Shown here: one piece after another, positions 9,569 to 62,105 of the stretch
Layout of the letters: every line of letters starts with the position of its first letter
Position numbering within the stretch: the first letter of the stretch is position 1
NCBI RefSeq assembly: GCF_002215035.1
Contig: NZ_NKFP01000002.1
Span: forward strand, 6,364-70,363
DNA from: Leptolyngbya ohadii IS1
GTDB lineage: Bacteria; Cyanobacteriota; Cyanobacteriia; Elainellales; Elainellaceae
DNA length: 64,000 bases
Reading direction: 5' to 3'
Program-made: the position numbers and the translations under genes
Notes under the pieces: model-generated
Databases searched by the model: none
What the model was told of the DNA's origin: nothing
The model's input: only the letters and a program-made list of their open reading frames with translations

Positions 9569-9618
9569 TCCTTTAAACTACAAAACTAATTGGGTCAATC
9601 ATGTAATAAGAGGTAGAG

Positions 9619-11293: not shown

Positions 11294-13333
11294 ATGCCCC
11301 CATTCCTGCAAAGCCTGCTGTCTTCAGGTCCGTTCATCCCCCACGGTCACTGCTATCTCTGGCAGACTCCCTTAGTAGGGCTGCATCTCCTCTCGGATGT
11401 CTTTATTGCTCTGGCTTACTACTCGATTCCAATATTTTTGGTTGCCTTTTCGGTCAAACGGAAAGACCTGCCCTTTCGTTGGCTCTTTTGGTTGTTTGGA
11501 GCATTTATTGTTTCCTGTGGCACGACTCACTGGCTGGATGTTGTCACGCTCTGGTATCCCGTTTATTGGTTCTCTGGTGGCGTTAAGGCAGTCACAGCAC
11601 TGGTCTCGGTTGCCACCGTCATGGAACTGATTCCGCTCTATCCTAAAGCCCTGGCATTGCCCAGCCCCGCACAGCTAAAGGCGATTAACCAACAGCTAGA
11701 GCAGGAAATTGAGGAACGGAAAGCAGTTGAAGCAGCACTCAGGGAGAGTGAGCAACGTAATGCTGAACTGTCAGCAGCAGCCCTGAAAGAGAAGGACAAT
11801 CTGCTGAATTTATTTGCTCAGTATGCCCCTGCTGGAGTTGTCATGTTTGACGACCAAATGCGCTACCTCATGGCGAGCCAACGCTGGATTGATGATTATG
11901 AGCTGGAGCCGGTTGAAGCCTTAATTGGACGATCGCACTATGAAGTCCGTCCCCATCTGCCAGAACCGTGGAAGCAGGTGCACCAGCGATGTTTAGCAGG
12001 GGCAACCGAACGGTGTGAGGAAGATCGGTTTGTTCGAGCCGATGGAGTGGAAAAGTTCATCCGCTGGGAGGTTCGTCCCTGGTATCAGGCAGCAGGAGAC
12101 GTAGGCGGCATCATTATGTTCTCGGAAGACATTACTGAACAAAAGCAGGCAGAACGGGCACTCCAGCAGCTCAATACTGAACTCGAACAGCGGGTAGTAG
12201 AACGAACAGCCGAACTCACAGCCCTCAGCGATCGTCTGAAAGAGGTACAGGAAATTGCTCGGATCGGGAGCTGGGAATACGACTTGCTCACTGGACAAAT
12301 TAGCTGGTCTGATGAAATCTTTCGTATCTTTGCTCTATCCCCAGAGCAGCCTGTCCCCAGCTATGAGCAGCACTTGCGCGAAAACTACCTGCCTGAAGAG
12401 GCAGCACGACTCCAGGCAGCAGTAACACGCGCACTAGAACAGAGAGAGCCGTATGAATTGGATTTGCAAATCATTCGAGCAGATGGCTCAACCGGATGGA
12501 TCTTGGGCAAGGGTAAGCCGATCGTCAATGAGCATCAGCAAGTGGTGCGCCTGGTAGGAACTGCTTTAGACATTACAGAGCGCAAGACCCTGGAAGTCGA
12601 GCAGCAGCACTTAGTCCAGATGAAGGATGAATTCCTCAGCTTGGTCTCTCACGAACTCCGATCGCCCCTCGCCAGTATCAAAATGGCAATTCATCTGCTA
12701 GAAATCAAGCTGGGGCAGGTGTTGCCTGTGCTTGAAGCAGAGAACCAAGTTCAGTGTCGGCAAATCCAGCAATACTTGAACATCCTCCATCAACAGTGCG
12801 ATCAGGAGCTTGAGATCGTCAATAACCTGCTGGACTTACAGCGGCTAGAAGCAGGCGGAGCCACTAAGACGATCGCCCCCATCCAGGTTCTTGAATGGGT
12901 TGAGCAGGTTGCTTCTGCTTATCAAGAACGGGCACAGGAACGACAGCAGCAGCTACAGGTATTGCTCCCTCCATCCGTACCAGACTTGCATTCAGATTGT
13001 GAGATCTTAACGAGTGTGCTGAGAGAGTTATTGACCAACGCCTGCAAGTACACGCCACCCGGAGAGACGATCACGGTGCAGGTAGAACCCACAACTGCCA
13101 ATATTCGGATTATGGTGCAGAATTCAGGCAGCTTTATCCCGCAAGCAGAACTAGAGCGCATCTTTGACAAGTTCTATCGAGTGCCGGGGGGCGACCCTTG
13201 GAAGCAGGGCGGGACTGGCTTAGGACTGGCTCTCGCTAAGAAGCAGGTAGAGTACCTGGGAGGGTCGATGCGGGCTGAGAGTGATGCGCGAGGGGTGCGG
13301 TTTATTCTCACTCTTCCGATAGAAATTGTCTAG
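11294..13333 (+). CDS. Ethylene-receptor-type histidine kinase
   Basis: 679 aa. Three membrane helices (about 30-53, 62-80, 90-115) form an ethylene-binding domain. Asp35, Tyr42, Cys75 and His79 (in SDVFIALAYYSIPIF and FIVSCGTTHW) have exactly the spacing of Asp25, Tyr32, Cys65 and His69 in plant ETR1, where Cys and His hold copper. A coiled coil, a PAS domain (about 175-285), a second coiled coil and PAS domain (about 290-430), HisKA with SHELRSPLA and an HATPase with G box GTGLGLALAKK follow. It probably senses ethylene or a related ligand, as SynEtr1 does in Synechocystis. The C-terminal half is nearly identical to the kinase at 412-1881. Confidence 0.9.
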   Translation: MPPFLQSLLSSGPFIPHGHCYLWQTPLVGLHLLSDVFIALAYYSIPIFLVAFSVKRKDLPFRWLFWLFGAFIVSCGTTHWLDVVTLWYPVYWFSGGVKAVTALVSVATVMELIPLYPKALALPSPAQLKAINQQLEQEIEERKAVEAALRESEQRNAELSAAALKEKDNLLNLFAQYAPAGVVMFDDQMRYLMASQRWIDDYELEPVEALIGRSHYEVRPHLPEPWKQVHQRCLAGATERCEEDRFVRADGVEKFIRWEVRPWYQAAGDVGGIIMFSEDITEQKQAERALQQLNTELEQRVVERTAELTALSDRLKEVQEIARIGSWEYDLLTGQISWSDEIFRIFALSPEQPVPSYEQHLRENYLPEEAARLQAAVTRALEQREPYELDLQIIRADGSTGWILGKGKPIVNEHQQVVRLVGTALDITERKTLEVEQQHLVQMKDEFLSLVSHELRSPLASIKMAIHLLEIKLGQVLPVLEAENQVQCRQIQQYLNILHQQCDQELEIVNNLLDLQRLEAGGATKTIAPIQVLEWVEQVASAYQERAQERQQQLQVLLPPSVPDLHSDCEILTSVLRELLTNACKYTPPGETITVQVEPTTANIRIMVQNSGSFIPQAELERIFDKFYRVPGGDPWKQGGTGLGLALAKKQVEYLGGSMRAESDARGVRFILTLPIEIV

Positions 13334-13411
13334 CACAGGCGAATTGAACAGACTCTTTAGGCTACTATTTTCCAGTTGCCAGAATTAAATCCTTATCCGT
13401 TCTGGCTGTTT

Positions 13412-13612
13412 ATGAGTCAGCCTTCATTCCCTGTTGGATTCACAGTCTACAAAGCTTCTGATTGCATCACCCTTCGTCCAGGCTTTGACGATATCCCAGG
13501 CTGGCACATTGTCTGTAGCTGTCGATCGTATGACCAGGCACTTGAAGCCGCTCAAAATGCTGCCCAAATCAGGCGATTGCCCTTGAAGATTGCTAATCAA
13601 GACGGGAAGTGA
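13412..13612 (+). CDS. Small GFTVY-family protein, copy 4
   Basis: 66 aa from the ATG at 13412 (MSQPSF), which corresponds to the start of copy 1 (MSQPPSF); an upstream in-frame start at 13376 is less likely. It has GFTVYKASDC, RPGFDDIPGW, IVCSCRSYDQALEAAQ and ends KIANQDGK. It lies 78 bp after the ethylene-receptor-type kinase, mirroring the arrangement at 412-2184. Confidence 0.75.
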   Translation: MSQPSFPVGFTVYKASDCITLRPGFDDIPGWHIVCSCRSYDQALEAAQNAAQIRRLPLKIANQDGK

Positions 13613-13832
13613 AGAACTGAATTGACCCATGAAGCTACCACTGCTAGTAATGAGCTGCGCCAAGGGTGATGCTTGCGCTACGGACTTTCCCTACCCTTCA
13701 AGGCAGACCTGAACAATCAAGCTTCTTACTCCGATCGTCAGACCGCTAACGTTGCTGTTTCTACCACCCGCTAGATACTAATGTGAAGCCAATTTGTAAT
13801 CATAGCGACATAACAAATCGAAGTGACAAACC

Positions 13833-13860
13833 GCCCCCAAGCCATAAAGGGGGCATTTTT
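13833..13860 (+). terminator. Rho-independent terminator
   Basis: GCCCCC and GGGGGC arms with a 10-base loop, followed directly by ATTTTT. It lies downstream of small gene copy 4 and just before the receiver gene. This argues that the receiver starts at the ATG at 13877 rather than at the in-frame GTG at 13823, which would put the hairpin inside the gene. Confidence 0.65.
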
Positions 13861-13876
13861 ACAGGTCTACGCAACC

Positions 13877-14290
13877 ATGCTCGATCGTCCACAAGTTCTT
13901 CGGTCTCAAGCACAGCCCTTAATGGGGTTACGTATTCTGCTGGTTGAGGACGAGTTTGATATTGCTAATCTACTCCTGTTCATCCTGGCAGATGCCGGAG
14001 CAGAAGTCGTTTGGGTGGCACAATCGTCTGATGCTCTAGCTTGTCTACCTGATATTCATCCTGATATTCTCCTGTCCAACATCAAACTCCCTGATGAGGA
14101 TGGAGACTGGCTCATTCAAGCCATTCGTGAGGCAGAGTCAGAAACCTTTCATCACCTTCCTGCCATTGCTATCTCCTCTTACACTAGAGAAGTCGCCGAA
14201 CACCAAATGCTCGAAGCTGGGTTTGAACGATTCCTGCCTAAAATCTTTGACTCAGATCAGCTGATTGCTACCATTCTCGAATTAGTCTAA
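13877..14290 (+). CDS. Stand-alone receiver domain lacking the phospho-acceptor Asp
   Basis: 137 aa, one REC domain only. The acidic pocket VEDEFD and the conserved Lys in FLPKIFD are present. The usual phospho-accepting Asp is Asn (LLSNIKLP, codon AAC at 14078-14080), so ordinary phosphorylation is not expected. It may be a pseudo-receiver that binds a kinase or clock partner constitutively. It lies between the ethylene-receptor-type kinase and the hybrid kinase. The Thr/Ser position is SS (AISSY). Confidence 0.85.
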   Translation: MLDRPQVLRSQAQPLMGLRILLVEDEFDIANLLLFILADAGAEVVWVAQSSDALACLPDIHPDILLSNIKLPDEDGDWLIQAIREAESETFHHLPAIAISSYTREVAEHQMLEAGFERFLPKIFDSDQLIATILELV

Positions 14291-14352
14291 CCCTCCCTCA
14301 GCAATCACTCTGGTATTAGGGCGATCGTTCCAAAAACAGGAAAAGGTGAAAG

Positions 14353-14560
14353 ATGGGCGGCTACCGCCGCTGGTAACGAGCTGGGCTACGCCTGATTTGT
14401 TCGGCAGGTTTTTACCCTTTCAATGCTCTGATGTTCACTGACTTTTTGCCCCAGGCAATGCTTCAAGCACACTAATTCGCTTATCCTCAATGCCTCTAGC
14501 TTTGGGGGTTAGTGGGCGCTACACGCTCCGCTTGCTGGTTGCTGGGGTGGACTGCTTACT
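14353..14560 (+). repeat. Composite repeat, left half only (copy 7)
   Basis: GGCGGCTACCGCCGCTGG, GAGCTGGGCTACGCCTG, CGGCAGGTTTTTACCC, then GGGGGTTAGTGGGCGCTACACG. It continues into the 14540-14715 stretch that duplicates 2400-2570. It sits between the pseudo-receiver and small gene copy 5. Confidence 0.6.
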
Positions 14561-14715
14561 TCAAGGGGTACCCACTCAGGCTGCGCTACAAACTGGGCTG
14601 TAACAAAGCTCTAGAGTTTTATAGCCTTCTCAATGAACTGTATTTCTTCACGTCACATTTGAATTGGCGGTTACGATCACAGGACATTACCTGATTATCG
14701 ATCGTTTCAAGCATC

Positions 14716-14904
14716 ATGAATTCCACCCAAACTCTGTCTGGCTTTACGGTTTATCAATCTCCTGGTTTTGTCACCATCCGTTCTGGATTTTCAGACATTC
14801 CTGGTTGGCGCGTCATCTGTAGCTGCTGGTCGTATGCACAAGCACTGGAAGCGGCTCAAAGTGCGTCTCAGTCCAAACGACAGCTTCTGAGGGTCAGCAG
14901 TTAA
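14716..14904 (+). CDS. Small GFTVY-family protein, copy 5
   Basis: 62 aa, differing from copy 2 (2571-2759) at only a few residues (SPGF for SAGF, ALEAAQSASQ for ALDAAQSAAH). Its upstream 170 bp are also shared with copy 2. It shows the complete family pattern. Function unknown. It is the last element of the duplicated block, upstream of the hybrid kinase. Confidence 0.75.
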   Translation: MNSTQTLSGFTVYQSPGFVTIRSGFSDIPGWRVICSCWSYAQALEAAQSASQSKRQLLRVSS

Positions 14905-38237: not shown

Positions 38238-38606
38238 TCAAACCGTGTCATCCTTCCATCCGCACTCCGGGCAGTCCCAATAAACGTAATTGGCAGCAGG
38301 CGGAAACGGATGACGGCACTGAGGGCACAGCCCCGTAAAAAGGGGATGCCAGAGCAAAAGTTCAAGCTGCTGAGCTTTAGTGAGGCGATCGACTGGGGAA
38401 GTAATCGTTTCCCTGTTATAACTGCCAAATTGCTGCGGCTCCCACCACTCATCCTCCAGAGCATTCGGATCAGGGTCATGATCGGGGCATTGCTCAAACC
38501 CATCCTCTACTCCGTAGGGGTGCATGGCGCAAAGCAGGAAGACACTCCGGGCACTATTGCGGCAATCCTCACACTGGGGAAGCTTTCGGATGGGGCGATC
38601 GCTCAT
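38238..38606 (-). CDS. Multi-cysteine zinc-binding protein
   Basis: 122 aa. CEDCRNSARSVFLLCAMHP and CPDHDPDP at the N-terminus, then CPQCRHPFPP...CPECGWKDD at the C-terminus: two probable zinc sites. The N-terminal C-x2-C-x9-C-x2-HP pattern is conserved in small cyanobacterial proteins as far as I recall. It starts three bases after the stop of the gene at 38610-38786, so the two are cotranscribed. Confidence 0.65.
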   Translation of the reverse strand: MSDRPIRKLPQCEDCRNSARSVFLLCAMHPYGVEDGFEQCPDHDPDPNALEDEWWEPQQFGSYNRETITSPVDRLTKAQQLELLLWHPLFTGLCPQCRHPFPPAANYVYWDCPECGWKDDTV

Positions 38607-38609
38607 GAT

Positions 38610-38786
38610 TCAGGGCATCCAAAAGCACTCATACAGATTAATTATCGTTTGTAGATCCTCATTGCTCACTTCACCACCCAGATAGGCTTGAAGCTGCTCG
38701 TGCAGTTCTAGGGGCGTATTACCCTGAAGCCTGCCTGTCCAAAATAGAACATCAATTTGTCGAATGTAGCGATGAGTGTTCGGCAT
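38610..38786 (-). CDS. Small hypothetical protein
   Basis: 58 aa from the ATG at 38786 (MPNTHRYIRQIDVLFWTGRL). Helical, with LELHEQLQAYLGGEVSNEDL and a C-terminal CFWMP. Its ATG overlaps the TAA of the upstream membrane protein (TAATG), which implies translational coupling. Unknown family. Confidence 0.55.
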   Translation of the reverse strand: MPNTHRYIRQIDVLFWTGRLQGNTPLELHEQLQAYLGGEVSNEDLQTIINLYECFWMP

Positions 38787-38941
38787 TACGGCATCCCACC
38801 CTTCAGCAGAAACTCCAGGGCATCCGTCATCTGATTGGTGAGGCGAGTTGTGAGCCACAATCCTACAATCAAGAAAACATCGACTAAGAATTGCCCCACA
38901 ACGAGCATAATAACGAGGCGGCGGGTCAGCTTAAACTTCAT
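38786..38941 (-). CDS. Short single-helix membrane protein
   Basis: 51 aa: MKFKLTRRLVIMLVVGQFLV, then DVFLIVGLWLTTRLTNQMTD and ALEFLLKGGMP. Basic N-terminus followed by one long hydrophobic helix. CCAGGTGTATCT precedes the ATG. It is the first gene of a tight set with 38610-38786 and 38238-38606. Coupling by TAATG supports it as real. Confidence 0.55.
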   Translation of the reverse strand: MKFKLTRRLVIMLVVGQFLVDVFLIVGLWLTTRLTNQMTDALEFLLKGGMP

Positions 38942-41167: not shown

Positions 41168-42364
41168 TTATCCAAACCGTGCTAAATTCCGCGATCGCCC
41201 GATTTGCTCAATCAAATCAATGACTCGATCGACAATTGCACCAGCCGCCACTCCTCGCCCTGCCGACCCGCCTTCGGCGGCAGCACGAAGTGACCGCACT
41301 GTCGCAAACCTGAGCTGGACATCCTCCTGTAGTGCCTGGGACAGGGTAGTCGATCGCCCATACCGCTCGTAGTCCCATTCGAGTGCCGATCGTGCTGCAA
41401 ATAGCTTCTCTGCACTGGGCAACCGATTGCGCTTCACATGACGATTAAAGTCACGGTCAGCCGGAACCAAATTCCAAAGCTCATTGATGGGATAGACCGA
41501 CAAAGGCAGTAGATGATCCAGGTCGTAGGGGATGCCCTGCACGATTCGTTTATCTGTCCAGGGGCAGCGGAACTCTTGCCCTTCCAGCAGCAGGATTTCG
41601 ATCTGGTTGTTTTCCCAGGTCAAGGGTCTGCGATTATCGGGGCGAGCAGTAAGCAGGTTATAAGTCTCTCCTCGGCTCACGGGCTGCTGAGACTGCGATA
41701 CTCGTTCCGTGAACAGACACCATTCATGAATACAGAGAGCCTCAATCCACAAAGACATTTCCTGAAAGGTGTGCCAGAGGTTCGCCTTAATCACAAGGCA
41801 CAAGTCATCTGCCTGAGTTCCGGGTACTGCTGCTACTCGCCCATTCAAATCCCCGTAGGTCATAGGCTTTTCAAAGACGGACCAATTTCCTGGACCTGCA
41901 TACTGAATTGGGGTTCTGATGGTTTTAGCGATCGCCTTTAAGGTCTTCTGATAGGTAGCCAGTAGCTGGGGCGGGTAGGTTGCTCTCCTGCGCGGAATGC
42001 GAAGTTCATGAATTGCGACAAATCCATTTGCTGCTCTGGATAGCCCCCCGGTCTGCTCCTCCCACTGGCGACGAAACTCGCTTAAGATTGGGCGAAATTC
42101 CATATCGTTGTGAAGCTTGCCGTCACGCTCCGATCGTTGTCCCTGGGAAATTGGCTGATTTGACGCGACAAAACCCCAATAGTAAGCGACCCAATACTCT
42201 GCAAGGAGCCGCAGGGGAACGGCTACATCCTGGTGATAGCTGTTCAAATCTGGAAAGGACAGCACGACATCGTTGATAGCCCGGAGCAGCGCAATCTTGT
42301 AGCTCGTCACCTTGCTATCGTGGCGGAGGATGGTACTAATGACCTGACTTGCACCAATATTCAC
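41168..42364 (-). CDS. HNH nuclease protein
   Basis: 398 aa. An unrecognised helical N-terminal two thirds is followed by an HNH nuclease at about 265-330: FRCPWTDKRI, YDLDHLLPLSVYPINELWNLVPADRDFNRH and KRNRLPS, with D-L-D-H and later N and H metal-type residues. It is the third gene of a minus-strand unit with a NERD-helicase and a 70-aa protein (gaps of 26 and 27 bp). HNH plus helicase suggests DNA defence or restriction (inference). Confidence 0.8.
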   Translation of the reverse strand: MNIGASQVISTILRHDSKVTSYKIALLRAINDVVLSFPDLNSYHQDVAVPLRLLAEYWVAYYWGFVASNQPISQGQRSERDGKLHNDMEFRPILSEFRRQWEEQTGGLSRAANGFVAIHELRIPRRRATYPPQLLATYQKTLKAIAKTIRTPIQYAGPGNWSVFEKPMTYGDLNGRVAAVPGTQADDLCLVIKANLWHTFQEMSLWIEALCIHEWCLFTERVSQSQQPVSRGETYNLLTARPDNRRPLTWENNQIEILLLEGQEFRCPWTDKRIVQGIPYDLDHLLPLSVYPINELWNLVPADRDFNRHVKRNRLPSAEKLFAARSALEWDYERYGRSTTLSQALQEDVQLRFATVRSLRAAAEGGSAGRGVAAGAIVDRVIDLIEQIGRSRNLARFG

Positions 42365-42391
42365 CGATCGTCTCCCCTTTGCTCCAATCCA

Positions 42392-42604
42392 CTATTCAGA
42401 GAGCGGCGGAAGCCGCTCATCTACCCATTCTTGAAACCGATCGGGGACGTGCTGATCGATCGCCTGTTTCAACACAGTTGCCTCAATCCTGCATTGCTCA
42501 AAGTCCATCAACAGGTGATAAAACTGCATCACCGCTGCCCCTTCGATTGCTCCAATCAACAAAAGATGATCGATTACCTCAGCAAATTCCTTAACGGTTC
42601 TCAT
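42392..42604 (-). CDS. Small helical protein in helicase/HNH unit
   Basis: 70 aa from the ATG at 42604 (MRTVKEFAEVIDHLLLIG), with AGGGGG upstream; an in-frame GTG at 42613 is possible. It is all-helical by sequence, with one conserved-looking Cys. It sits between the NERD-helicase and the HNH gene. No domain is recognised; an adaptor role is possible. Confidence 0.6.
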   Translation of the reverse strand: MRTVKEFAEVIDHLLLIGAIEGAAVMQFYHLLMDFEQCRIEATVLKQAIDQHVPDRFQEWVDERLPPLSE

Positions 42605-42630
42605 CCGCTGCACCCCCTAGCACTTCTTTT

Positions 42631-44502
42631 CTAGTTCACCCAGCTCATCGCCAGTTCTAACCGCTTCACAAACTCAGATTGACGATCGCACGTCAGCACC
42701 AGTTGATCGATCGCCCTGGTCATTGCCACATATAATAGTCGCGCCTCCTCAGTTTCAGATCCGCCTGGGTTTGGCATAAATCCAATGCCGGGAATAAAGA
42801 TGATCGGGAATTCAAGCCCCTTGCTAGAGTGCATCGTCAGCAGCTTGATACTTTGCTCAGCGGCATTAAAGTCGCGGCTATCGCTGGTTTCGTTGACCCA
42901 TTCGACGGGGATCTCGGCTTCCCGGAGCCGCTTACAAACTTGCTCACCCATAAATCGGGCACGGTAGACGATTGCTATTTCATTCCAGGCAGTGCCCCGC
43001 TCACGAAATTGCTGAATGCGATCGACTAAATAATCAGTTTCCTGCCGGAAGCTGGGCAGGCGAATCAGATCGGGTTTGGCTCCGTGCCGTCCTGCGCTTT
43101 GGGGCTGCACAATCACCGGAGCATCCTCTTCCTGCACTTCAGCGGCAGTAAAGACCTCCTTAGCGAATTCATAGGCAACCGATAAAACTTCTTGAGTGTT
43201 CCGGTAATTCAGTTTCAGGATAGTCGTTCGTCCCTGTGCCTGGATGCCCACGCTCTTGAAGCTAAACTTTCGATTGCTCTGCTTTTCGTAGAGCGATTGG
43301 GCATCGTCGTACAGTACGAGGAGCGATCGTGTTTCGGCATCGACCATCTGCGCCACCAACTTCAACCACTCCGGCTGAAAATCATGCCCTTCGTCAATAA
43401 GAACTGCCCCATACCGACCAGCGGGGATAATTCCGGCATCGACTGATTCGATGACTCGTTGTACCAATTCCTCAACATAAGCTTCACCCTTGTACTGTCT
43501 GGAGTCGGGTCGTGGAATTCGGTAGGCGCGAAGCTCGTCGCTGCACCAGCCATGAAAATGACGGACAACCACCCGATCGCCTAACCCCTTCTCCTGCATC
43601 ATCTGTCGGAGCTTTGCCGCCAGGGAGACGTTAAAGCAGACGACGAGAATCGGCTTGGTGATGCTTTGGGCGAGGAACTGGCAGCGGTACGCCAGAATCA
43701 ACGTTTTGCCGGAGCCTGCCACGCCATGAATAATCCGATTGCCATCCCCCAGGCTACGGGCAAGCTGCTCCTGCTGTAAGTCCATGATGCGGATGATGTC
43801 TGGAATTGTTGCTGCGAGACTTTCGGGTTCTGGCTCGGCGAATTCTTCGATCGCCAACGACAGTTGCTTGCTCGTAATTCGCAGATCAGGAAACAGATGC
43901 CACCGGATGCGATCAATTTGCTCCGATGATAGCCAGTTGCCAAACTGATAGGGACTCAAATCCCAGAGCCGCTGCTGAAATTCACCGGGGTCTATGGTTT
44001 CTCGGATCTCATCCTGGCAAATAACCAAATGAGGATTAAGCACCTGAGAGAGAGCAGGCTCTGACTCAAATGCTTTGCGCGTGATATTGGTCAGTACAAC
44101 TCCATAGGCATAGGGACAGATGAGATTCCCTGCATAACGACCAAATTGCTGCACCAGTTGGTCATCACCCTCCAGCATTTTATTAATGGCAAGCGCATAG
44201 TCCCGCGCCTGTTCTAGCGGGTTTTTAACTTGCTTTGTACCATCGGGCGTGACGATCGTAACCTCACCCGGATTGACCTGTGCGATCGTACTCAGCTTCC
44301 AATCCTTCACTTCCAGCACAAACAGCCCCCGTCCTGGGTGCAGCACAATAAAGTCCGGGTGCAGACGTTTAGGGCCGATCGGTACGTCATACCACAGCAG
44401 ATAATCGTCGTCTAGATGACTCTCAAGTACTCTAGCCAGTCGTCTTTCTCCAGCAGTCATCCGCTGGCTACAGCTACTGAAGGCGGGAATCAGGGTTGCC
44501 AT
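42631..44502 (-). CDS. NERD-domain UvrD/Rep-type helicase
   Basis: 623 aa. The N-terminal NERD nuclease-related domain (GERRLARVLESHL, HPDFIVLHPGRGLFVLEVKDWK, with D..E-x-K) is followed by a superfamily 1 helicase: Walker A GVAGSGKTLILAYRC, motif II VLIDEGHDFQ, motif IV-like LKLNYRNTQEV and LLTMHSSKGLEFPIIF, then LLYVAMTRA. NERD plus helicase proteins are often found on plasmids and in defence islands. It is the first gene of the three-gene unit ending at 41168. Confidence 0.9.
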   Translation of the reverse strand: MATLIPAFSSCSQRMTAGERRLARVLESHLDDDYLLWYDVPIGPKRLHPDFIVLHPGRGLFVLEVKDWKLSTIAQVNPGEVTIVTPDGTKQVKNPLEQARDYALAINKMLEGDDQLVQQFGRYAGNLICPYAYGVVLTNITRKAFESEPALSQVLNPHLVICQDEIRETIDPGEFQQRLWDLSPYQFGNWLSSEQIDRIRWHLFPDLRITSKQLSLAIEEFAEPEPESLAATIPDIIRIMDLQQEQLARSLGDGNRIIHGVAGSGKTLILAYRCQFLAQSITKPILVVCFNVSLAAKLRQMMQEKGLGDRVVVRHFHGWCSDELRAYRIPRPDSRQYKGEAYVEELVQRVIESVDAGIIPAGRYGAVLIDEGHDFQPEWLKLVAQMVDAETRSLLVLYDDAQSLYEKQSNRKFSFKSVGIQAQGRTTILKLNYRNTQEVLSVAYEFAKEVFTAAEVQEEDAPVIVQPQSAGRHGAKPDLIRLPSFRQETDYLVDRIQQFRERGTAWNEIAIVYRARFMGEQVCKRLREAEIPVEWVNETSDSRDFNAAEQSIKLLTMHSSKGLEFPIIFIPGIGFMPNPGGSETEEARLLYVAMTRAIDQLVLTCDRQSEFVKRLELAMSWVN

Positions 44503-44530: not shown

Positions 44531-44764
44531 CTATGCCTCACAGCCAATGCCATCACGGTCGCGATCGAAGCGGTGGGGATCACTGCCGACGACTCGGAAG
44601 TTTCGATGCGGAACATCACCACAGTCCAGGTCAGGTGGGGCTGGCGCGATGCAAACATTTGGATAGGAAGGGTCGCAGTTCGATCGCGCCTGAGTCGGTT
44701 GAACGTTTACGATGAAAAGGATAGAAGCGATAATCACGAAAGCTAAATACAGTATTCGTCCCAT
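44531..44764 (-). CDS. Secreted excalibur-domain protein
   Basis: 77 aa from the ATG (MGRILYLAFVIIASILF). Signal peptide, then a short Cys-containing region and the excalibur calcium-binding motif DLDCGDVPHRNF...DRDRDGIGCE with D-x-D-x-D-G-x-G-C-E. Exported; probably binds calcium at the cell surface. Confidence 0.8.
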   Translation of the reverse strand: MGRILYLAFVIIASILFIVNVQPTQARSNCDPSYPNVCIAPAPPDLDCGDVPHRNFRVVGSDPHRFDRDRDGIGCEA

Positions 44765-44807
44765 AGGTTCTGAAAAAACTGAAGCATCTGCTGTCAGGAT
44801 TCCCAAA

Positions 44808-47787: not shown

Positions 47788-48377
47788 TGCCCCTCACCAT
47801 GAACGAAGCAGCCAAAGATCCATCCAGCTTTGTTTCGTTGACCGACTCCAGCATTACCCGCCAGCGTATTGCTGCTAGCAGCAAGTGGCGCGATCGCGAT
47901 CGCCTCATACCAAAACTCACCCTCGTTAATAGCCGCTCTACCCGTCAGCCTTACCGCCTGCCCTTGTCGAACAACTCCCAAGATTGCTTCATGTGCAAGT
48001 CTTGGCTCTGAACGCAGATTGGCGTTTCCAGATTGTCCGTTGCAACTGCGGATTGTGATAACGCTACTAGGATGACCGGGCGTGGGAGACGGAGAAGGAG
48101 ATGGTTTGAAGTAAGGCGGTTCTGGTTGGGGTGCAGGAGACGGTGCAGGTGTGGGAACCGGAGTTGTGGGAGCAGGGGCAATAACCTGGGGTGAAGTTGG
48201 CGCTGCTGCAATCGCATTTGGAACCACTAGAGGCATCACAGCTCCGCGTTGAGTTGTTGCCATTACAGCAGCTCGTTTTTGCGCCGCCGCAATCGCACTA
48301 GACCGCTGCCAGGACAACACTGAAGTTGCGCCAACGATCGCTACTCCTGAATAGAGAAGAATTCTGCTGAGTCTCAT
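47784..48377 (-). CDS. Membrane-anchored Pro-rich protein with SH3b-like domain
   Basis: 197 aa. N-terminal hydrophobic anchor (RILLYSGVAIVGATSVL), a long Pro/Ala spacer (about 50-105), and a C-terminal SH3b-like region (NLRSEPRLAHEAILGVVRQG, FWYEAIAI, AGWIFGCFV). Its start overlaps the stop of the ATPase gene (ATGA). It probably sits in the envelope, reaching across the periplasm; the SH3b suggests peptidoglycan binding. Confidence 0.65.
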   Translation of the reverse strand: MRLSRILLYSGVAIVGATSVLSWQRSSAIAAAQKRAAVMATTQRGAVMPLVVPNAIAAAPTSPQVIAPAPTTPVPTPAPSPAPQPEPPYFKPSPSPSPTPGHPSSVITIRSCNGQSGNANLRSEPRLAHEAILGVVRQGQAVRLTGRAAINEGEFWYEAIAIAPLAASSNTLAGNAGVGQRNKAGWIFGCFVHGEGQ

Positions 48378-50941
48378 GAAGGCTCACCTCCGATTAATTC
48401 ATCAAAACTTTTCCAATCATTCGGGTCTTCTCCCCACGCTTTACCGGGAAGTTTGCGACCGTTTTCATACAGGATTTTGCGAAACTTCCACTTGGCAGCC
48501 AGGTATTTAATACTCGTTCCCGATCGAGGCGTACCCCACACTTTTTCTATGACTTTGCTCTGGTTTTGAAGCTGGTCGTACTGCACAAGCACCCGCTGCA
48601 CCAGTGCAGGAGAAATGCCCGGTGCAAGGGGATTTTCCGGTGCGGCACCGGAGGCGTGATCAGTGGGGTGCGCCCCTGTAAAATCCTGGTGCAGTAAGTC
48701 TTCAAGCCGCCGCACCACTTCCGGTGCGGGACTGGTGCCATCGGGTGCGGCACCGGAACCTGCACTGTCCGCACCCGCATCTGCACCGTCCGCACCGAAG
48801 TCCGCACCGAGTGTTTCTATGTCCTGCACCGATCGATCGTCTTCATCCAATTGAGTTTGAGTGAGTTCATTTTCCAGGAATTCACTCTCCTCGTCTTCGT
48901 CCGTTTCAGTCGCTTCTAAAAGCGGAATCGTAAAGGTTGAAAGATAAGCATCGGGTGTGGGCATTTGCGCGAGATATGGCTGCTCGTTGGGCAGTGCAAA
49001 TAAGCCGTAATACCTGTATTGTTTGTCTTTCGTTTTGAAGTAGCGTTCGCGTCTGAGGCGGTACTGCGCTTCTAAGTCTGACTTTTCCGTGCCCTTGCAG
49101 CGGTAATTGATCCCGATCGAGATCGCCCCGCCCATAAACAGGAGTCCCAGGTTCTCCAGATCCACCACGTTGATTTTGAGCTGGTTTGCCATCAGGTTTT
49201 GTCCGGCAATCAGGGTCAGCACTCCCAGCTCTGCCCCCATCCGCCACAGTCGGAGAAGGTAGGTGGAAACCGCAAACTTGGGGGGAAAATCATGGTCTTT
49301 CAGCCATTCAATGTCGTCGGGGTCTACCGGCTGGTTAAAGCGGCTGATGACTTCATTAATTTCATCAAAGAAATAAATGCGCTGATCTTCGTCAAACTCG
49401 CGCAAGGGACGATCGTTTCGGTAATCGGCTTCTCTCAATTCAATGCGGCGCTGCACTTCATCGGCAGCTTCCCGCAGTCCCTTCAGGCATTCTTTTGCCC
49501 CCAGGTAGCGAGGTTTTAAGACCTTGAGAGCGGTAGAGAGCTTGGCATCCCCCACGATGAGTTCGGCGTTGCCGCCCAATCGCCGCTGCATGATGGCAAG
49601 GATATTATTGATGCAGACCGTTTTACCCATCCGCGTCGGACCAAAAAGTCCAATGTGGTAGCAGCTCTCGACAAACAGTTCAAAGTGCTCCTGTGGGGGT
49701 TCAGCAATCGCTTCAGCGGCACGGCGAGCTTCTGCTTCCCAATCGACGCCGGAGGTATCGATTGTCAAGCGAATCTGCCGATGCAGCAGTTCAAGTTCTG
49801 GCATCGTGCGACAGCCCGGAACCACGCCTCGGATGCCTTCTTTGACGCGCTCTAGCCGCTTGTAGGCATCGATGAGGCTCTCGGCATATTTGACTTTTTC
49901 GTTCTTGCCAGGGGCGATCACAAGGATGCCAAACGACAATCGAAACTTGGCTTTACCGTAGGGAGTTACGAGGGGCGATCGGACAATGATGCCCTGCTCA
50001 TAGAGGTAGGCAATGACGCGATCCGCGAGGAGTTCTTCGGTGGTTGTGCCTTCCACATACTGGGGCTGCTGCAAGTTGTAGATGTAAAGCCGCTGGGATT
50101 CGATCGTCGCTTCCTGGTCGGCAATCAGTTGTCTGTAGCGATCGATTTCCTTTTGTGCCGCCGCAACCAGGGCATGGTGCTGTTTTTCAAATTCCTCAAT
50201 CAAGAGCTTTCGCTGATTATCGAGGTCTTGCTCTAGCTTGGCAGCACGGGCACTGAGCTGCGATCGGGCGTCTCGTTCGGCTGCATCTAGTTCAACTGCC
50301 TTTTCTTCTGCCCAGGCATGAATGGCATCACGTTCGGCTTTGAGCTGGTTTTTCGTGGCTTCCAGTTCAGCCGTTTGCACTTCTAAGCGTTCCCACTGAC
50401 TTTGCCAGGATTGCGTCAGGCGTTGCTTTTCCGTTTCAAATTCAATTTGCTGATTGGCAAGTGATTGCCTGAGCTGTAAGAGTTCATATTCCTTTTGCTG
50501 CAACAGCTTGGCGTAGTAGTCGATCGTCGATTGGATCTGCTGAGTCGCCTGAGCGTCGTAATACTGCTGAATTTCCCACTGCTGCTGCTGAAGGGTAGCC
50601 TGGTGCTGCTCCTGTAAGCGGGTCATTTGAAATTGGTGCAAAGCTGTGGCTTCGGCGATCGGGTCATAGATTTCTACCTCTGGGTCACGGTAAAGAGCCG
50701 CGATCGCACAGGCGGCTCCACCGAGGCGAATTGCCCACAGCAACGTCGCGAGGAGGGGTTGTTGGGGGCGAACCCCAAAGGTAAGGGTCGTGCAGGTTGC
50801 CAGCACCAAAAGCCATAAACGCGGCTTCACCTCGCGGGTGGGACGCGCCGCAAGAGGACGAAAGGGGTTATCGGTGGGGATGATTTGAGGGTAGGAAGTC
50901 ATAGGCTGCACCGGATGCAGTGAGGGAGCAGGCGTAGGCAC
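48374..50941 (-). CDS. Membrane-anchored HerA/FtsK-like ATPase
   Basis: 855 aa, GTG start overlapping the preceding TAG. Two N-terminal hydrophobic segments (about 42-56 and 64-82), a very long coiled coil (about 95-290), then an ATPase with Walker A GLFGPTRMGKTV (about 430) and Walker B IYFFDEINEV (about 525), plus LTLIAGQNL as a sensor. The C-terminal third is Ala/Gly/Asp-rich and ends with a small helical region (VIEKVWGTPRSGTSIKYLAA). It resembles VirD4/FtsK DNA pumps in layout, so DNA transfer or segregation is likely (inference). It is the centre of a packed operon. Confidence 0.75.
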   Translation of the reverse strand: MPTPAPSLHPVQPMTSYPQIIPTDNPFRPLAARPTREVKPRLWLLVLATCTTLTFGVRPQQPLLATLLWAIRLGGAACAIAALYRDPEVEIYDPIAEATALHQFQMTRLQEQHQATLQQQQWEIQQYYDAQATQQIQSTIDYYAKLLQQKEYELLQLRQSLANQQIEFETEKQRLTQSWQSQWERLEVQTAELEATKNQLKAERDAIHAWAEEKAVELDAAERDARSQLSARAAKLEQDLDNQRKLLIEEFEKQHHALVAAAQKEIDRYRQLIADQEATIESQRLYIYNLQQPQYVEGTTTEELLADRVIAYLYEQGIIVRSPLVTPYGKAKFRLSFGILVIAPGKNEKVKYAESLIDAYKRLERVKEGIRGVVPGCRTMPELELLHRQIRLTIDTSGVDWEAEARRAAEAIAEPPQEHFELFVESCYHIGLFGPTRMGKTVCINNILAIMQRRLGGNAELIVGDAKLSTALKVLKPRYLGAKECLKGLREAADEVQRRIELREADYRNDRPLREFDEDQRIYFFDEINEVISRFNQPVDPDDIEWLKDHDFPPKFAVSTYLLRLWRMGAELGVLTLIAGQNLMANQLKINVVDLENLGLLFMGGAISIGINYRCKGTEKSDLEAQYRLRRERYFKTKDKQYRYYGLFALPNEQPYLAQMPTPDAYLSTFTIPLLEATETDEDEESEFLENELTQTQLDEDDRSVQDIETLGADFGADGADAGADSAGSGAAPDGTSPAPEVVRRLEDLLHQDFTGAHPTDHASGAAPENPLAPGISPALVQRVLVQYDQLQNQSKVIEKVWGTPRSGTSIKYLAAKWKFRKILYENGRKLPGKAWGEDPNDWKSFDELIGGEPS

Positions 50942-57336: not shown

Positions 57337-58631
57337 GTTTAGAAGTGAGTAACAGGATTCAGGTTTTAGCGAGAACCAAGTTGTTCCTGATCTGTTTGAT
57401 GTGGTTCGGTTTCAGTCCCGCAAGCGGGATTCAGGTTTTAGCAAGGCAGCACCCACACTTACCAGACTGGATTCTTAGCAGTCATAAGTTTCAGTCCCGC
57501 AAGCGGGATTCAGGTTTTAGCGAGTAGTTGACATCCAGCAAGTCGATCGTTTTGTTCCAATGTTTCAGTCCCGCAAGCGGGATTCAGGTTTTAGCTAGTT
57601 TGACATCCGGATTGATATCCGCCTCAATTTTTTTAGTTTCAGTCCCGCAAGCGGGATTCAGGTTTTAACAAGTCAGCCCACGTCTTTATCGAGCTGGTTC
57701 CTGAAGATTGTTTCAGTCCCGCAAGCGGGATTCAGGTTTTAGTAAGCAATGTGAGTACTTTACACAACGTTCAATTAGAATTTGTTTCAGTCCCGCAAGC
57801 GGGATTCAGGTTTTATCAAGTTCTCTTTTTCGTGAGAGAGGGGTGAAAACTGGGTTTTGTTTCAGTCCCGCAAGCGGGATTCAGGTTCTAGCAAGCAATG
57901 TGAGTACTTTACACAACGTTCAATGAGAATTTGTTTCATTCCCGCAAGCGGGATTCAGGTTTTAGCAAGGTAATGCAATATGTTGCCCTACTGCTTTAAT
58001 CTGCTGTTTCCGTCCCGCAAGCGGGATTCAGGTTTTAGCAAGTATCCTACCGATCTCTCAGGGGTTAGGAATGTAATACGTTTCAGTCCCGCAAGCGGGA
58101 TTCCGGTTTTAGCAAGCGGAATGGATCGGGTGAAGGCAGAGCTGACAGCCGTGTTTCAGTCCCGCAAGCGGGATTCAGGTATTAGCAAGCAAACTCGATC
58201 GCCTCTCCCACGCTGCCCTCAGAATGCGGTTTCAGTCCCGCAAGCGGGATTCAGGGTTTAGCAAGTCTTAATCGGTTCCGGTGTCCGATCGATAATCGCC
58301 TGGTTTCAGTCCCGCAAGCGGGACTCAGGTTTTAGCAAGCCGTCCGGGGCAGGACACCACAACAGGATTTGAAGTGTTTCAGTCCCGCACGCGGGATTCA
58401 GGTTTTAGCAAGAAACAAAGCGGATACAGCGGCAAAGTCGAGTCACTTTGTTTCAGTCACGCAAGCGGGATTCAGGTTTTAGCAAGGTTCTTCCGTTAAT
58501 CTTCTGTAGATAAAGAATTCCGTTTCAGTCCCGCAAGCGGGCTTCAGGTTTTAGCAAGGCAAGACGTAAGCCTAAGTAGGCTGAAATGGGAGGAGTTTCA
58601 GGCCCGCAAGCGGGATTCAGGTTTTAGCAAG
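57337..58631 (-). CRISPR. Type I-D CRISPR array, 18 repeats and 17 spacers
   Basis: Repeats are 37 nt. On the plus strand they begin GTTTCAGTCCCGC and end GGTTTTAGCAAG. Read on the minus strand they end GGGACTGAAAC, as in the type I-D repeat of Synechocystis, so transcription is leftward and the handle is ACTGAAAC. Repeat starts: 57337 (very degenerate), 57409, 57488, 57562, 57636, 57710, 57784, 57859, 57933, 58006, 58080, 58153, 58229, 58303, 58376, 58450, 58522, 58595. Spacers are 35-42 nt. Spacers at 57747-57783 and 57896-57932 differ at one base. Many repeats carry single changes, including those nearest the leader. Confidence 0.98.
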
Positions 58632-58908
58632 TCCGTAGCGTGAAACTCTTACTACAAGCAGCTTCTAAAAGCCGTTTTCGCAAACCTCAAAATTTGAGCC
58701 GATTCAGAGCTTCAGAAGACAGACGATCGCCCCCTCTTTAAGGGATTTAGATTCTCGAACCTATTAATTTGTCAAGGTTCTAGTCATTTTCGCGAACCCC
58801 CCAGGGTTTTTGACCCCGCTTCGGTTTGCGAAAAATTATGCTCTTATCATAGTCAAAACATTCCTGGGCTGTCGAGATGTTGAGTGTGAATAAGAGCTAA
58901 CTTAATAC
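58632..58908 (-). promoter_or_regulatory. CRISPR leader and operator-like sites
   Basis: 277 bp between the array and the WYL gene. TTTTCGCAAACC (58675-58686) and TTTTCGCGAACC (58787-58798) are direct relatives, and the inverse GGTTTGCGAAAA lies at 58823-58834. Repeated sites between an array and a WYL regulator suggest binding by that regulator (inference). Confidence 0.6.
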
Positions 58909-59868
58909 TTAGCCCTCTCGATTTTCATAGTTCAAAAATGCCCTTCTCAGAACATCCTGTATTTCATCCGCAAACCACTGCGGCTCGATCACTTTAGCAC
59001 TAGCTCCATACTGTAAGATTCGCTGGCGAAACCAGAATAGGTATTCTTCCTCAGTAATGATCTCTACGAACCCTGCTTCATCCTGTCGCAATTGTTCCTT
59101 CTCCTGAGAGCGGCGAGGTTTGTAGGTACTTAAATCACCAAAGAGGCGATACCGAATCGTTAGTGTCGGGAACAGACTGTAAGTCCAGGGCGTTTGAGAT
59201 GCGGCTCCAATGCGAAGAATCCGATCGATCCGAAACATAAAATTTTGGTCAACGTTGGGGAGGTAGTCAAACCGACGGCTCCTCATAGTTGGGACGACCG
59301 CAAAAAGGTAAAGTACACCGTTATGTAGTCTCAACTCGCATTTGTCTAAGTCCCAAGCTGCTTCTCTCCCCTTGCTGCTGCAATACCAAAGGACGAAACG
59401 ACGTTTTTGCTGAATGCGCTGTTGGAGGAGCCGTACCGTCTGGTCGATCGCCTCATCGCTGTAATCCACAGGAGGATGAAAATCAACTTTTAGGGTGGAG
59501 GATTGAACTGCGCTGCGAATATTGCCAATTCGATAAAGCTGGCTCGCCTGGGTAGAAAATCCCATGTCAGCCAGAACATGCGCTGCCAAGACAAGAGACT
59601 CCCGTTGCTCCTCTGCCAGCAGTACCGGGAAGACCGATTCGACTAACCGATAGGGGCAATTTGGAGCACCCTGAATTTGAAAGCCGCAAGACCGTAACTT
59701 TCTAATGGTTCGCTCGATCTTCTGGTCTAAATCCACTGCGACAAAACCGCGATCGCCCAGCGCAATTTCTAACTCTGCCTTTTTATGGGGCTTTTCAGCC
59801 AGGAGCTTCAGAATTTCTAGCGCAAAGCTCAGAGGATTAGAAGAAATAACATCACTTTTTGATGTCAT
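58909..59868 (-). CDS. WYL-domain transcriptional regulator of the CRISPR-Cas locus
   Basis: 319 aa. N-terminal winged helix (LEILKLLAEKPHKKAELEIA), a middle helical part, then the WYL domain at about 130-250 (KRRFVLWYCSSKGREAAWDL, LHNGVLYLFAVV, RFDYLPNVDQNFMFRIDRIL). WYL regulators next to type I-D loci control array and cas expression; the Synechocystis one is a repressor. Divergent from cas3 with about 50 bp between their starts. Confidence 0.9.
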   Translation of the reverse strand: MTSKSDVISSNPLSFALEILKLLAEKPHKKAELEIALGDRGFVAVDLDQKIERTIRKLRSCGFQIQGAPNCPYRLVESVFPVLLAEEQRESLVLAAHVLADMGFSTQASQLYRIGNIRSAVQSSTLKVDFHPPVDYSDEAIDQTVRLLQQRIQQKRRFVLWYCSSKGREAAWDLDKCELRLHNGVLYLFAVVPTMRSRRFDYLPNVDQNFMFRIDRILRIGAASQTPWTYSLFPTLTIRYRLFGDLSTYKPRRSQEKEQLRQDEAGFVEIITEEEYLFWFRQRILQYGASAKVIEPQWFADEIQDVLRRAFLNYENREG

Positions 59869-59918
59869 TTGTTTTCAGACAGGTATTAGACTTGCTTCAA
59901 CGACATCCTCAGCCTACC

Positions 59919-62105
59919 GTGAAAATTCTTCTCAAGCCACTGTATTCACAACTTAACTCCGGACTGGGGCATTGTCCGTTGGGCTGCACTCAGCAGTGCC
60001 GAGTTCGTAAGCAAGCTCCTGAGTTTGCCAGCAGCCTAGATGCGGAATGCCCCCTTTCCTCCCACCAGGCGCAGACCTATGCCGAGGTGATGCAGGGAGA
60101 TGCAGAAATTATCTTCAACACCTCTTCCACGGGGGACGGTAAATCGCTTGCGGCGACACTCCCCATTTTGCTGAATCCTTCTCTGCGAGTCATCAGCCTT
60201 TACCCGACGATCGAACTGGTGGCGGATCAGGAGCGGCAGATCAAGGGCGATAGCAGCAAACAACTGCTGGGATACTGCGATCGATTCAATGTCGCACAGC
60301 AGGTTCGGATTGACAGCTTATATGGCGCAGAATTGGCTCGTCGCGTTGCAGCCGCCGCTAAGGGCAATCGATTTAAGGAATTACTGAAAGCAATCCGGCA
60401 ACAATCCATCATTCTGACCAACCCCGATATCTTTCATTTGATGGCTCACTTCCGGTATCAAGATCCTGCCTATAGTCGGGCGGAGTTACCGATCACCTTA
60501 ACTCGCCATCTCGATCTCTATATTGCAGATGAATTTCATATCTTTGGTGTTCATCAGGAAGCCGCTATCCTGAACTGTCTTCTGCTGATTCGGTACAACC
60601 GTTCCAAAAGAAGACGGATGAAGTTTTTATTTACATCCGCCACACCCAAACCATCCTTTATTCAAACGTTAAAAGCTGCTGGATTCAAAGTCTCGCAGGT
60701 TGCGGGAAATTATTTGAGTGAACCCGCACCCGGATTTCGGCAAATTGCTCAACCCGTTGAACTGGAATTTGCACTGCTAAACCCCGAAACTGATGCGCTA
60801 GCCTGGATCACAGAGCAACTAGAGCAGATTCAGGCTACCTTGAGCCAGGAAGGACGCGGACGAGGGTTAATCATCCTCAATTCCGTTGCGCTGGTCAGCC
60901 GGGTGGTAAGACTTCTACAAACCTTACTGCCGGAGAATCAAGTTCTGGTTCGGGAAATCAGCGGACGGATCGATCGCCAGGAACGGGAGAAAATCCAGGC
61001 AGAGTTAGCCAATGCCCCTCAATCGGTTTTGATTATTGCAACTTCAGCAGTGGATGTGGGAGTTGACTTTAAAATTCACCTGCTGATCTTTGAGGCAAGC
61101 GATTCAGCAACCTCAATTCAACGGCTGGGAAGATTGGGTCGTCATGCTGGATTTTCCTGTTACAAAGCGTTTGTCCTGATTCCGGCTCGGACTCCCTGGG
61201 TAATAGCACGACTCAAAGATCAGTTAAAAGATGGACAGGTGATTAGTCGAATTCGATCGCAGTTTGATGAACTGGATTTCCGCACCGTGATTGAGGAGGC
61301 ATTCGACCCACCCAAAGAATTTGAGCAGTATCGCACCTGTTGGGGCGCACTTCAGGCACAGGGAATGTTAATCAATATGAGTCGTTCTCGCAGCGAAGCG
61401 GAAATTATGCAGCCGCTTCAGGAACTGCTCAAAGCTGACCTGAGACAGGTCTATGGGGAACAGCTTGATAAAAAGCGCAACCATTGGTTTGCCTTGAGCA
61501 ATGATCCTACAGGGACGGGTAAAGCCGTTCAGCGCGAACTACTGCGATTTAGAGGGAGATCAGATTTGCAGGCTGCGGTCTGGGATGGTTCTCGCTTCTA
61601 TCACTATGACCTGCTGAAGCTCTTACCTCATGTCGAAGTAGAGGTAATCGATCGCGATAGCTTCCTGAACGCTGCAATTCAGCACAATCACGCCGACACA
61701 GAATTTGACGATCGCTATATTCAGCTCTATCTCAAAGTCGTCCGCTGGGTCGATCAGCGATTCTCTATCAGCTTAGAATGCAATCGCAGCAGCGAAAAAT
61801 TACACCCCTGCACTCTATCCCTGATCGATCGAATTAGTATCACCGGACATCCTCAAGTTGAAGTCAGCCACTGCATCAAAAAGCAAAAGCTGCTCGCGTT
61901 TCTGGTCGAAGTCGATCGCCATCATCAAAGCAGTCACTGGAATATTAGCAACCAGCTTCACCTAAGTCCTACATTTGGTCTTTATCGGCTGATTGATGGG
62001 GAAGGAACTGCCTATGCTTGTGCATTTAATCAGGATGCTTTACTGCTGGAGGCTTTAAAGTGGCGGATTAAACGCTGTGAAAAGTCCAAAGCTTTTATCT
62101 TTTAA
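59919..62105 (+). CDS. cas3': Type I-D CRISPR-associated helicase Cas3'
   Basis: 728 aa from the GTG at 59919 (VKILLKPLYSQLNSGLGHCP), the usual beginning of this family. An upstream ATG at 59862 would overlap the WYL gene. Helicase motif I STGDGKSLAATLP, DEFH-box YIADEFHIFG, motif III FLFTSATPKP, and motif VI with SIQRLGRLGRHAG. N-terminal cysteines GHCPLGCTQQC are typical. No HD nuclease, as in type I-D where HD is on Cas10d. It unwinds target DNA with the Cascade complex. Confidence 0.93.
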   Translation: MKILLKPLYSQLNSGLGHCPLGCTQQCRVRKQAPEFASSLDAECPLSSHQAQTYAEVMQGDAEIIFNTSSTGDGKSLAATLPILLNPSLRVISLYPTIELVADQERQIKGDSSKQLLGYCDRFNVAQQVRIDSLYGAELARRVAAAAKGNRFKELLKAIRQQSIILTNPDIFHLMAHFRYQDPAYSRAELPITLTRHLDLYIADEFHIFGVHQEAAILNCLLLIRYNRSKRRRMKFLFTSATPKPSFIQTLKAAGFKVSQVAGNYLSEPAPGFRQIAQPVELEFALLNPETDALAWITEQLEQIQATLSQEGRGRGLIILNSVALVSRVVRLLQTLLPENQVLVREISGRIDRQEREKIQAELANAPQSVLIIATSAVDVGVDFKIHLLIFEASDSATSIQRLGRLGRHAGFSCYKAFVLIPARTPWVIARLKDQLKDGQVISRIRSQFDELDFRTVIEEAFDPPKEFEQYRTCWGALQAQGMLINMSRSRSEAEIMQPLQELLKADLRQVYGEQLDKKRNHWFALSNDPTGTGKAVQRELLRFRGRSDLQAAVWDGSRFYHYDLLKLLPHVEVEVIDRDSFLNAAIQHNHADTEFDDRYIQLYLKVVRWVDQRFSISLECNRSSEKLHPCTLSLIDRISITGHPQVEVSHCIKKQKLLAFLVEVDRHHQSSHWNISNQLHLSPTFGLYRLIDGEGTAYACAFNQDALLLEALKWRIKRCEKSKAFIF

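What the first reader, a model, noticed from the sequence alone, without database searches (positions are those of the whole stretch)
41168..44502. NERD-helicase, small protein and HNH nuclease as a candidate defence cassette
Three genes in one direction with gaps under 30 bp combine a NERD/UvrD helicase, a 70-aa helical protein and a large protein ending in an HNH nuclease. The mix of nucleases and a helicase in an accessory region fits an anti-phage or anti-plasmid system. I do not recognise the three-part set as a named system.
Basis: partly seen in the sequence, partly recalled or inferred. Interest (0 to 1): 0.7.

Follow-up and report, generated by a model that had tools for sequence, protein, structure and literature searches.

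The report
Nuclease-helicase gene block in a cyanobacterium
Three neighbouring genes in a cyanobacterium encode a DNA-unwinding nuclease of a family sometimes found beside virus-defence genes, a tiny helical protein and a second likely DNA-cutting enzyme; the same order was seen in only two other genomes, where it is falling apart, so it looks like a loose block of defence genes more than one fixed machine.

Summary
In detail: three minus-strand genes, NERD-UvrD (623 aa), a 73-aa protein (SMALL) and a 398-aa HNH_4 protein, with gaps of 17 and 27 bp. NERD-UvrD is already catalogued (PADLOC C3a187), keeps its PD..ExK and helicase motifs across phyla, and lies within 5 kb of CRISPR-type or viperin genes in 8 of 24 NERD-positive Nostocaceae genomes. 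SMALL belongs to a small cyanobacterial family of predicted four-helix proteins that sits beside NERD-UvrD genes or remnants at 6 of 9 loci found in its order. The HNH protein is patchy (Cyanobacteria, Chloroflexota, Hymenobacter, Deinococcus) with different neighbours by lineage. The order NERD-SMALL-HNH was found at 3 of 35 HNH loci: here intact; in FACHB-502 (NERD reduced to its last 22 residues, HNH split); in Leptolyngbya FACHB-321 (SMALL decayed). Both others carry an extra gene between SMALL and HNH. Best reading: a block of accessory defence genes whose core is NERD plus SMALL, with HNH a loosely attached second nuclease. A single obligate three-part system is possible but not favoured. 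No function was tested.

The parts
42631..44502 (-). NERD-UvrD nuclease-helicase (PADLOC C3a187 family), 623 aa
   Evidence: motifs P49-D50..E64xK66, Walker A 260-267, D370-E371, motif VI 589-597
42392..42613 (-). SMALL, 73 aa, predicted four helices; its family lies beside NERD genes at several loci
41168..42364 (-). HNH_4 endonuclease-like protein, 398 aa; N-terminal helical region that may be a winged helix (my reading of the model)
38610..38858 (-). paralogue of SMALL in the same window (context)
44531..44806 (-). Excalibur-like 91-aa ORF (sub-threshold Pfam match) ending 28 bp upstream of NERD (context); 79% identical over 296 bp to DNA beside SMALL in G386:C78
57409..58661 (.). CRISPR array, 17 repeat copies, on the same contig (context)
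59859..62105 (+). Cas3d of a type I-D CRISPR-Cas system (context)

Best explanation
It is a block of accessory defence genes on a 108.8-kb contig that may be a plasmid (not tested), not one fixed machine. The working core is the NERD-UvrD protein with SMALL: the SF1 helicase motor moves along invading phage or plasmid DNA, probably from ends or stalled forks, and the attached PD-(D/E)xK (NERD) domain cuts it; SMALL binds the helicase and regulates it or helps it load. The HNH protein is a second, separately mobile DNA endonuclease that may recognise DNA through its N-terminal region; it may share a transcript here but does not need the other two. Shown: gene order, motifs, family memberships, linkage of SMALL with NERD, and the neighbourhoods of NERD. 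Inferred: DNA as target, defence as role, the part played by SMALL, and co-transcription.
For: PD..ExK, Walker A, the DE of motif II, NYRN and YVA.TRA are invariant in 13 of 13 family members sampled from Cyanobacteria, Vibrio, E. coli and Pantoea; flanking positions vary, and the K of motif V is L in the distant L023. CRISPR-type genes (4 genomes) or viperin with its kinase (4 genomes) lie within 5 kb of NERD in 8 of 24 NERD-positive Nostocaceae genomes. SMALL family: 11 places at 9 loci in 5 of 36 genomes of the order; 6 of the 9 loci are within 5 kb of a NERD gene, a NERD fragment or (G386:C35) a 22-residue NERD remnant; a SMALL relative also lies 8 bp upstream of a disrupted, more distant NERD-UvrD in G185, and a decayed copy follows NERD in L022. 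HNH: relatives in other phyla with other upstream genes; NERD or SMALL sequence upstream in 1 of 33 further HNH loci.
Against: The NERD-SMALL-HNH order does recur in two other genomes, and NERD and HNH co-occur in 5 of 217 Nostocaceae genomes against 1.44 expected (P 0.008, not corrected for kinship): more linkage than a purely loose block predicts. SMALL is not general to the NERD family: the SMALL profile finds it at none of the 24 Nostocaceae NERD genomes' loci. No background rate of defence genes was measured, so 8 of 24 may partly reflect accessory DNA in general. The Pantoea copy lies among type VI secretion genes. Thermonuclease-like and Excalibur-type genes lie near several NERD or SMALL loci, which also fits nutrient or DNA-uptake roles. 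No activity is known for any of the three proteins.
Confidence: 0.5

Rival explanations
1. One three-component defence system: SMALL couples the NERD-UvrD motor to the HNH endonuclease, and all three are needed.
For: Tight spacing here; same order in FACHB-502 (L041/L099) and FACHB-321 (L022), with SMALL directly after NERD or its remnant in both; SMALL is linked to both others; NERD and HNH co-occur more than expected in Nostocaceae.
Against: Triple at 3 of 35 HNH loci, with at least one of the three broken in the other two and an unrelated gene between SMALL and HNH in both. None of the 24 Nostocaceae NERD genomes has SMALL near NERD, and 3 have HNH within 6 kb.
Confidence: 0.2
2. NERD-UvrD is an ancillary factor of CRISPR-Cas immunity (clean-up or processing of targeted DNA), here serving the type I-D system on the same contig; SMALL and HNH are passengers.
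For: NERD lies 1.8 kb downstream of cmr6 in a type III-B locus of Nostoc PCC 7524, 0.3 kb after Csx1-type CARF-HEPN genes in G064, 2.7 kb from Cas3b in G078 and 0.2-0.5 kb after Cas2-like and Cas1 genes in G533, where NERD itself is interrupted; a Cas3d and an array lie 13-15 kb away in the window; UvrD and NERD are named among putative CRISPR auxiliary genes in a figure legend of PMC10910872 (passage seen).
Against: In 20 of 24 Nostocaceae genomes no CRISPR-type gene was recognised within 5 kb (four of these have viperin); the 16 without any recognised antiviral gene were judged by eye. The 3 gammaproteobacterial regions fetched have no annotated cas gene.
Confidence: 0.13
3. Plasmid DNA processing, repair or uptake: the nuclease-helicase and HNH act on the replicon's own or imported DNA, with secreted-type nuclease genes as part of the same cargo.
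For: Excalibur-like ORF 28 bp upstream and thermonuclease-like genes (by eye) at several related loci; 22 plasmid records hold an HNH relative and 22 a NERD relative.
Against: Neighbourhood with CRISPR-type or viperin genes in 8 of 24. Links to replication or transfer genes were not tested systematically.
Confidence: 0.12

Closest known systems
PADLOC C3a187 'NERD+UvrD'
   Same: Match over residues 1-616, profile 1-554 of 559, 789 bits; L022 scores 741 and L023 330 bits.
   Different: A model of one protein; SMALL has no PADLOC match and HNH only weak ones (best E 0.0056) to another candidate. A full-text search for the name C3a187 found nothing, so where it comes from is not known to me.
Gabija (GajA + GajB)
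   Same: GajB is a UvrD-type helicase (passage of PMC10952713); the window protein scores E 4.9e-25 to a GajB model through the helicase part.
   Different: Far below the C3a187 score; no OLD/TOPRIM domain in the 8 other ORFs scanned around it.
DRT systems with RTasNERD-Hel; Nhi-like; Mokosh type I
   Same: NERD with a helicase: RTasNERD-Hel E 6e-18; a table in PMC10952713 lists NERD for Mokosh type I and Nhi-like (passage).
   Different: No reverse transcriptase among the ORFs scanned; Nhi is not among the 25 of 41 models shown for the window protein. Mokosh partners were not sought.
HNH_4 proteins, including the Cas9 HNH domain
   Same: HNH_4 motif; D283, H284, N298 and N307 invariant in 22 relatives; weak matches to Csn1 (E 0.0011) and one Cas9 structure (E 0.035), over the HNH stretch and up to about 25 residues beyond it.
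   Different: 398 aa; Pfam finds no RuvC; 17 bits against the Csn1 cut-off of 100.

Membership tests
PADLOC C3a187 (NERD+UvrD) | NERD domain and UvrD helicase in one protein, matching the model over its length | tested here: met
   residues 1-616 on profile 1-554/559, E 5.5e-238; Pfam NERD and UvrD_C
PADLOC C3a187 (NERD+UvrD) | intact PD-(D/E)xK and SF1 helicase motifs | tested here: met
   13 family members
Gabija | GajA (OLD-type ATPase-TOPRIM) encoded next to GajB | tested here: not met
   no such domain in the 8 other ORFs scanned between 36100 and 50941; one search lists no other ORF over 400 aa there except 48374-50941, which was scanned
DRT with RTasNERD-Hel | reverse transcriptase gene beside the NERD-helicase | tested here: not met
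   none among the 8 other ORFs scanned; E 6e-18 only
Cas9 / type II CRISPR | RuvC plus HNH in one large protein | tested here: not met
   HNH_4 only, 17 bits against a cut-off of 100
Conserved three-gene system NERD-SMALL-HNH | the three genes together and intact in several lineages | tested here: not met
   order at 3 of 35 HNH loci, all three intact at 1 of 35; five of the 33 further loci have under 4 kb upstream
Conserved three-gene system NERD-SMALL-HNH | the three genes jointly needed for protection | not testable with these tools
   needs phage assays

The most novel reading that the evidence does not exclude
NERD-UvrD plus SMALL is an unnamed two-gene anti-phage or anti-plasmid system whose small helical protein is the adaptor, followed by an exchangeable effector slot: HNH alone here, a 210-aa gene with an R....H motif (HEPN-like by my reading, no Pfam match) then HNH in FACHB-502, a CAP-domain gene then HNH in FACHB-321.
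Probability: 0.17. Interest if true: 0.6.

Novelty: new variant of a known kind. Interest (0 to 1): 0.4.

Why it matters
NERD-UvrD proteins are catalogued, but the searches made here showed no paper that characterises this family as a system. Linking one branch to a specific small partner, and finding the family next to CRISPR-type and viperin genes, gives a short list of constructs to test. The HNH family (22 members aligned, with an invariant core, and fused to a methyltransferase in Roseomonas) is a second untested nuclease family on cyanobacterial plasmids.

Tried and rejected
HNH with a helicase as a general rule: among proteins of at least 350 aa in loci L022-L048, I counted helicases as 8 of 43 within 4 kb and 3 of 39 farther out; both are minimum counts, since the family lists are capped at 25. 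Fisher P 0.13, so this was dropped.

Folds: the HNH model has mean pLDDT 77, with residues 290-312 below 50; Foldseek gave no match with E up to 0.001; the best second-look row was MukF, Z 3.8, 95 residues, rmsd 3.9, too weak to name a fold. SMALL: model pLDDT 89 from 3 sequences, no Foldseek match with E up to 0.001, best second-look Z 6.3, 58 residues, rmsd 2.6, to a designed complex, usual for small helical bundles. Missing matches show nothing.

Relatives in viral contigs by peptide patterns: none for HNH or NERD. SMALL in the plasmid collection: none at E 0.01. The main text of PMC11229360 has none of NERD, UvrD, helicase or HNH. G389:C44 has a stretch upstream of SMALL that looks by eye like a NERD N-terminus, but tblastn gave E 2.0, so it was not counted. 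One search (viperin papers) gave mostly unrelated listings.

Full report
What is there. The window is a stretch of a 108,788-bp contig (C2) of a 7.9-Mb, 8-contig genome; it is cyanobacterial by its relatives. On its minus strand lie NERD-UvrD (44502-42631), SMALL (42613-42392) and HNH (42364-41168), with gaps of 17 and 27 bp. An Excalibur-like ORF (sub-threshold match) ends 28 bp upstream, so the same-strand run is longer than three genes.

NERD-UvrD. Pfam finds NERD and UvrD domains, and PADLOC model C3a187 'NERD+UvrD' matches almost the full length with 789 bits. In 13 family members from Cyanobacteria, Vibrio, E. coli and Pantoea, PD..ExK, Walker A, the DE of motif II, NYRN and YVA.TRA are invariant; other positions vary. 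Counting the own genome, it occurs in 8 of 386 genomes of the phylum sample at E up to 1e-100, in 7 of 40 relatives at E up to 1e-60, fragments included, and in 24 of 217 Nostocaceae genomes at E up to 1e-100, fragments included. I listed the surroundings in all 24 Nostocaceae genomes, several on short contigs. Eight have known antiviral genes within 5 kb: type III-B cmr genes in Nostoc PCC 7524 (equated with G583 by identical coordinates), two Csx1-type CARF-HEPN genes in G064, Cas3b in G078, Cas1 in G533, where NERD is interrupted, and viperin with its kinase in G019, G072, G167 (UHCC 0926) and G529. The 16 others were judged by eye from ORF lists or annotation, so 8 is a lower bound; no background rate was measured. 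Three gammaproteobacterial regions fetched have no annotated cas or viperin gene; the Vibrio copy has DNA methylase genes nearby and the Pantoea copy lies inside a type VI secretion cluster.

SMALL. Counting the own genome, 2 of 386 genomes of the phylum sample match it directly and no plasmid record does. A ten-member alignment (A2) finds 11 places in 5 of 36 genomes of the order at E up to 1e-5, at 9 loci. Six of these loci are beside NERD: G000:C2 (17 bp; the paralogue 3.8 kb), G386:C78 (1.3 kb), G389:C81 (0.5 kb), the NERD fragments of G000:C7 (1.5 kb) and G395:C454 (31 bp), and G386:C35, where the last 22 NERD residues remain just before SMALL (77% identical; DNA colinear across the junction at 75%). 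G386 also has an intact NERD at C78. The three others (G391:C84, G389:C44, G389:C69) have no convincing NERD. A rough null that keeps SMALL on its contig gives a product of 6e-5 over five contigs; placing loci anywhere in the genome gives 1e-13. The 5-kb limit was chosen after seeing the data, and both nulls ignore shared ancestry and preferred insertion sites. Outside the order, G185 has a SMALL relative 8 bp upstream of a disrupted, more distant NERD-UvrD. The SMALL profile finds nothing at the Nostocaceae NERD loci. In G386:C78 the Excalibur-like stretch is directly followed by SMALL, without NERD between, while NERD lies 1.3 kb away on the other strand: NERD and SMALL can be rearranged with respect to each other. 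The predicted structure has four helices, pLDDT 89, with no informative fold match.

HNH. Counting the own genome, long matches occur in 2 of 386 genomes of the phylum sample (17 more match weakly, over at most about 135 residues around the motif), 3 of 40 relatives and 13 of 217 Nostocaceae. Genome contigs gave 27 loci in Cyanobacteria, Chloroflexota, Hymenobacter, Truepera and a Bacteroidetes MAG; plasmids gave 22 records, of which I saw 8 regions. In 22 aligned members D283, H284, N298 and N307 are invariant. Upstream genes differ: a 79-114-aa 'YCTRN' protein directly upstream in 10 cyanobacterial loci (L024-L030, L037, L049, L050), a MazG-like gene (by eye) or an SLFN-type helicase gene in four Hymenobacter loci, a DUF3427 type IV-like enzyme in one. 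In Roseomonas the same region is fused to a methyltransferase.

The triple. I examined 33 further HNH loci for NERD or SMALL sequence up to 4 kb upstream (five of them cut short by the contig end): only L022 has it. With the window and FACHB-502 (L041, the same contig as L099) that is 3 of 35. L053 was left out because its HNH gene did not cluster with the rest, L066 because it is the same contig as L031; HNH loci known only from G handles or from L104 were not in this count. In L022 (Leptolyngbya FACHB-321) NERD is intact, SMALL is decayed, a CAP-domain gene follows and HNH is intact. In FACHB-502 NERD is a 22-residue remnant, SMALL is followed by a 210-aa gene without a Pfam match, and HNH is split. 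The order is thus older than this genome, but the set is not kept together. In Nostocaceae NERD and HNH occur together in 5 of 217 genomes (1.44 expected, P 0.008 without correction for kinship), on one contig in 4 and 4-6 kb apart and convergent in 3; I read this as shared plasmid cargo.

Literature. Seen as passages only: PMC10952713 lists NERD for Mokosh type I and Nhi-like and describes GajB; PMC10910872 names UvrD and NERD among putative CRISPR auxiliary genes in a legend; PMC12458937 mentions a NERD nuclease in a rare YprA-type system of Chloroflexota; PMC12409351 lists a NERD-domain gene in a Vibrio gene cluster of a phage-infectivity analysis. I found no paper on this three-gene set in the searches; the library lacks most subscription journals.

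Verdict. A real, closely spaced block with intact nuclease and helicase motifs; defence is the most likely role of NERD-UvrD; SMALL is its most likely partner in this lineage; HNH is probably independent. Every statement about function is inference.

Noticed in passing
window 57409-62105: A type I-D CRISPR-Cas system starts here: array of 17 repeats, a WCX-domain (WYL-type) regulator (58909-59868) and Cas3d (59859-62105), on the same contig.
   Followed up: partly
L070 5944-10828; L067 9329-14140; L107 3044-7884; L117 5987-10953: Viperin, its kinase, a small UvrD helicase and NERD-UvrD form a recurring cluster in four Nostocaceae genomes, gene order varying; in L109 the small helicase lies beside NERD without viperin. 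The two helicases may belong to viperin immunity.
   Followed up: partly
L077 9817-11769 (G000:C7): What looks like a broken relative of the methyltransferase-HNH fusion of Roseomonas lies on another contig of the same genome.
   Followed up: no
L030 7772-11014; L115 10005-13727; L106 12263-13303: In Nostoc loci an HNH_2 gene with a partner lies divergent to the YCTRN gene and an HNH_4 gene; in L115 the HNH_4 gene at this place is a different protein, as if swapped, and L106 has an annotated HNH protein of similar size.
   Followed up: partly
L022 6655-9060: The NERD-UvrD reading frame of FACHB-321 continues upstream into an NCH2 (NACHT C-terminal helical) match, either a fusion or two genes in one frame.
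   Followed up: no
window 38238-38858: A SMALL paralogue and a cysteine-rich 122-aa ORF lie side by side; similar ORFs are found around NERD in G185 (L074) and on C7 (L097).
   Followed up: partly
window 718-14903: Several long direct repeats, for example 718-1017 with 12170-12469 (88%) and 2542-2758 with 14687-14903 (92%), about 11-12 kb apart.
   Followed up: no
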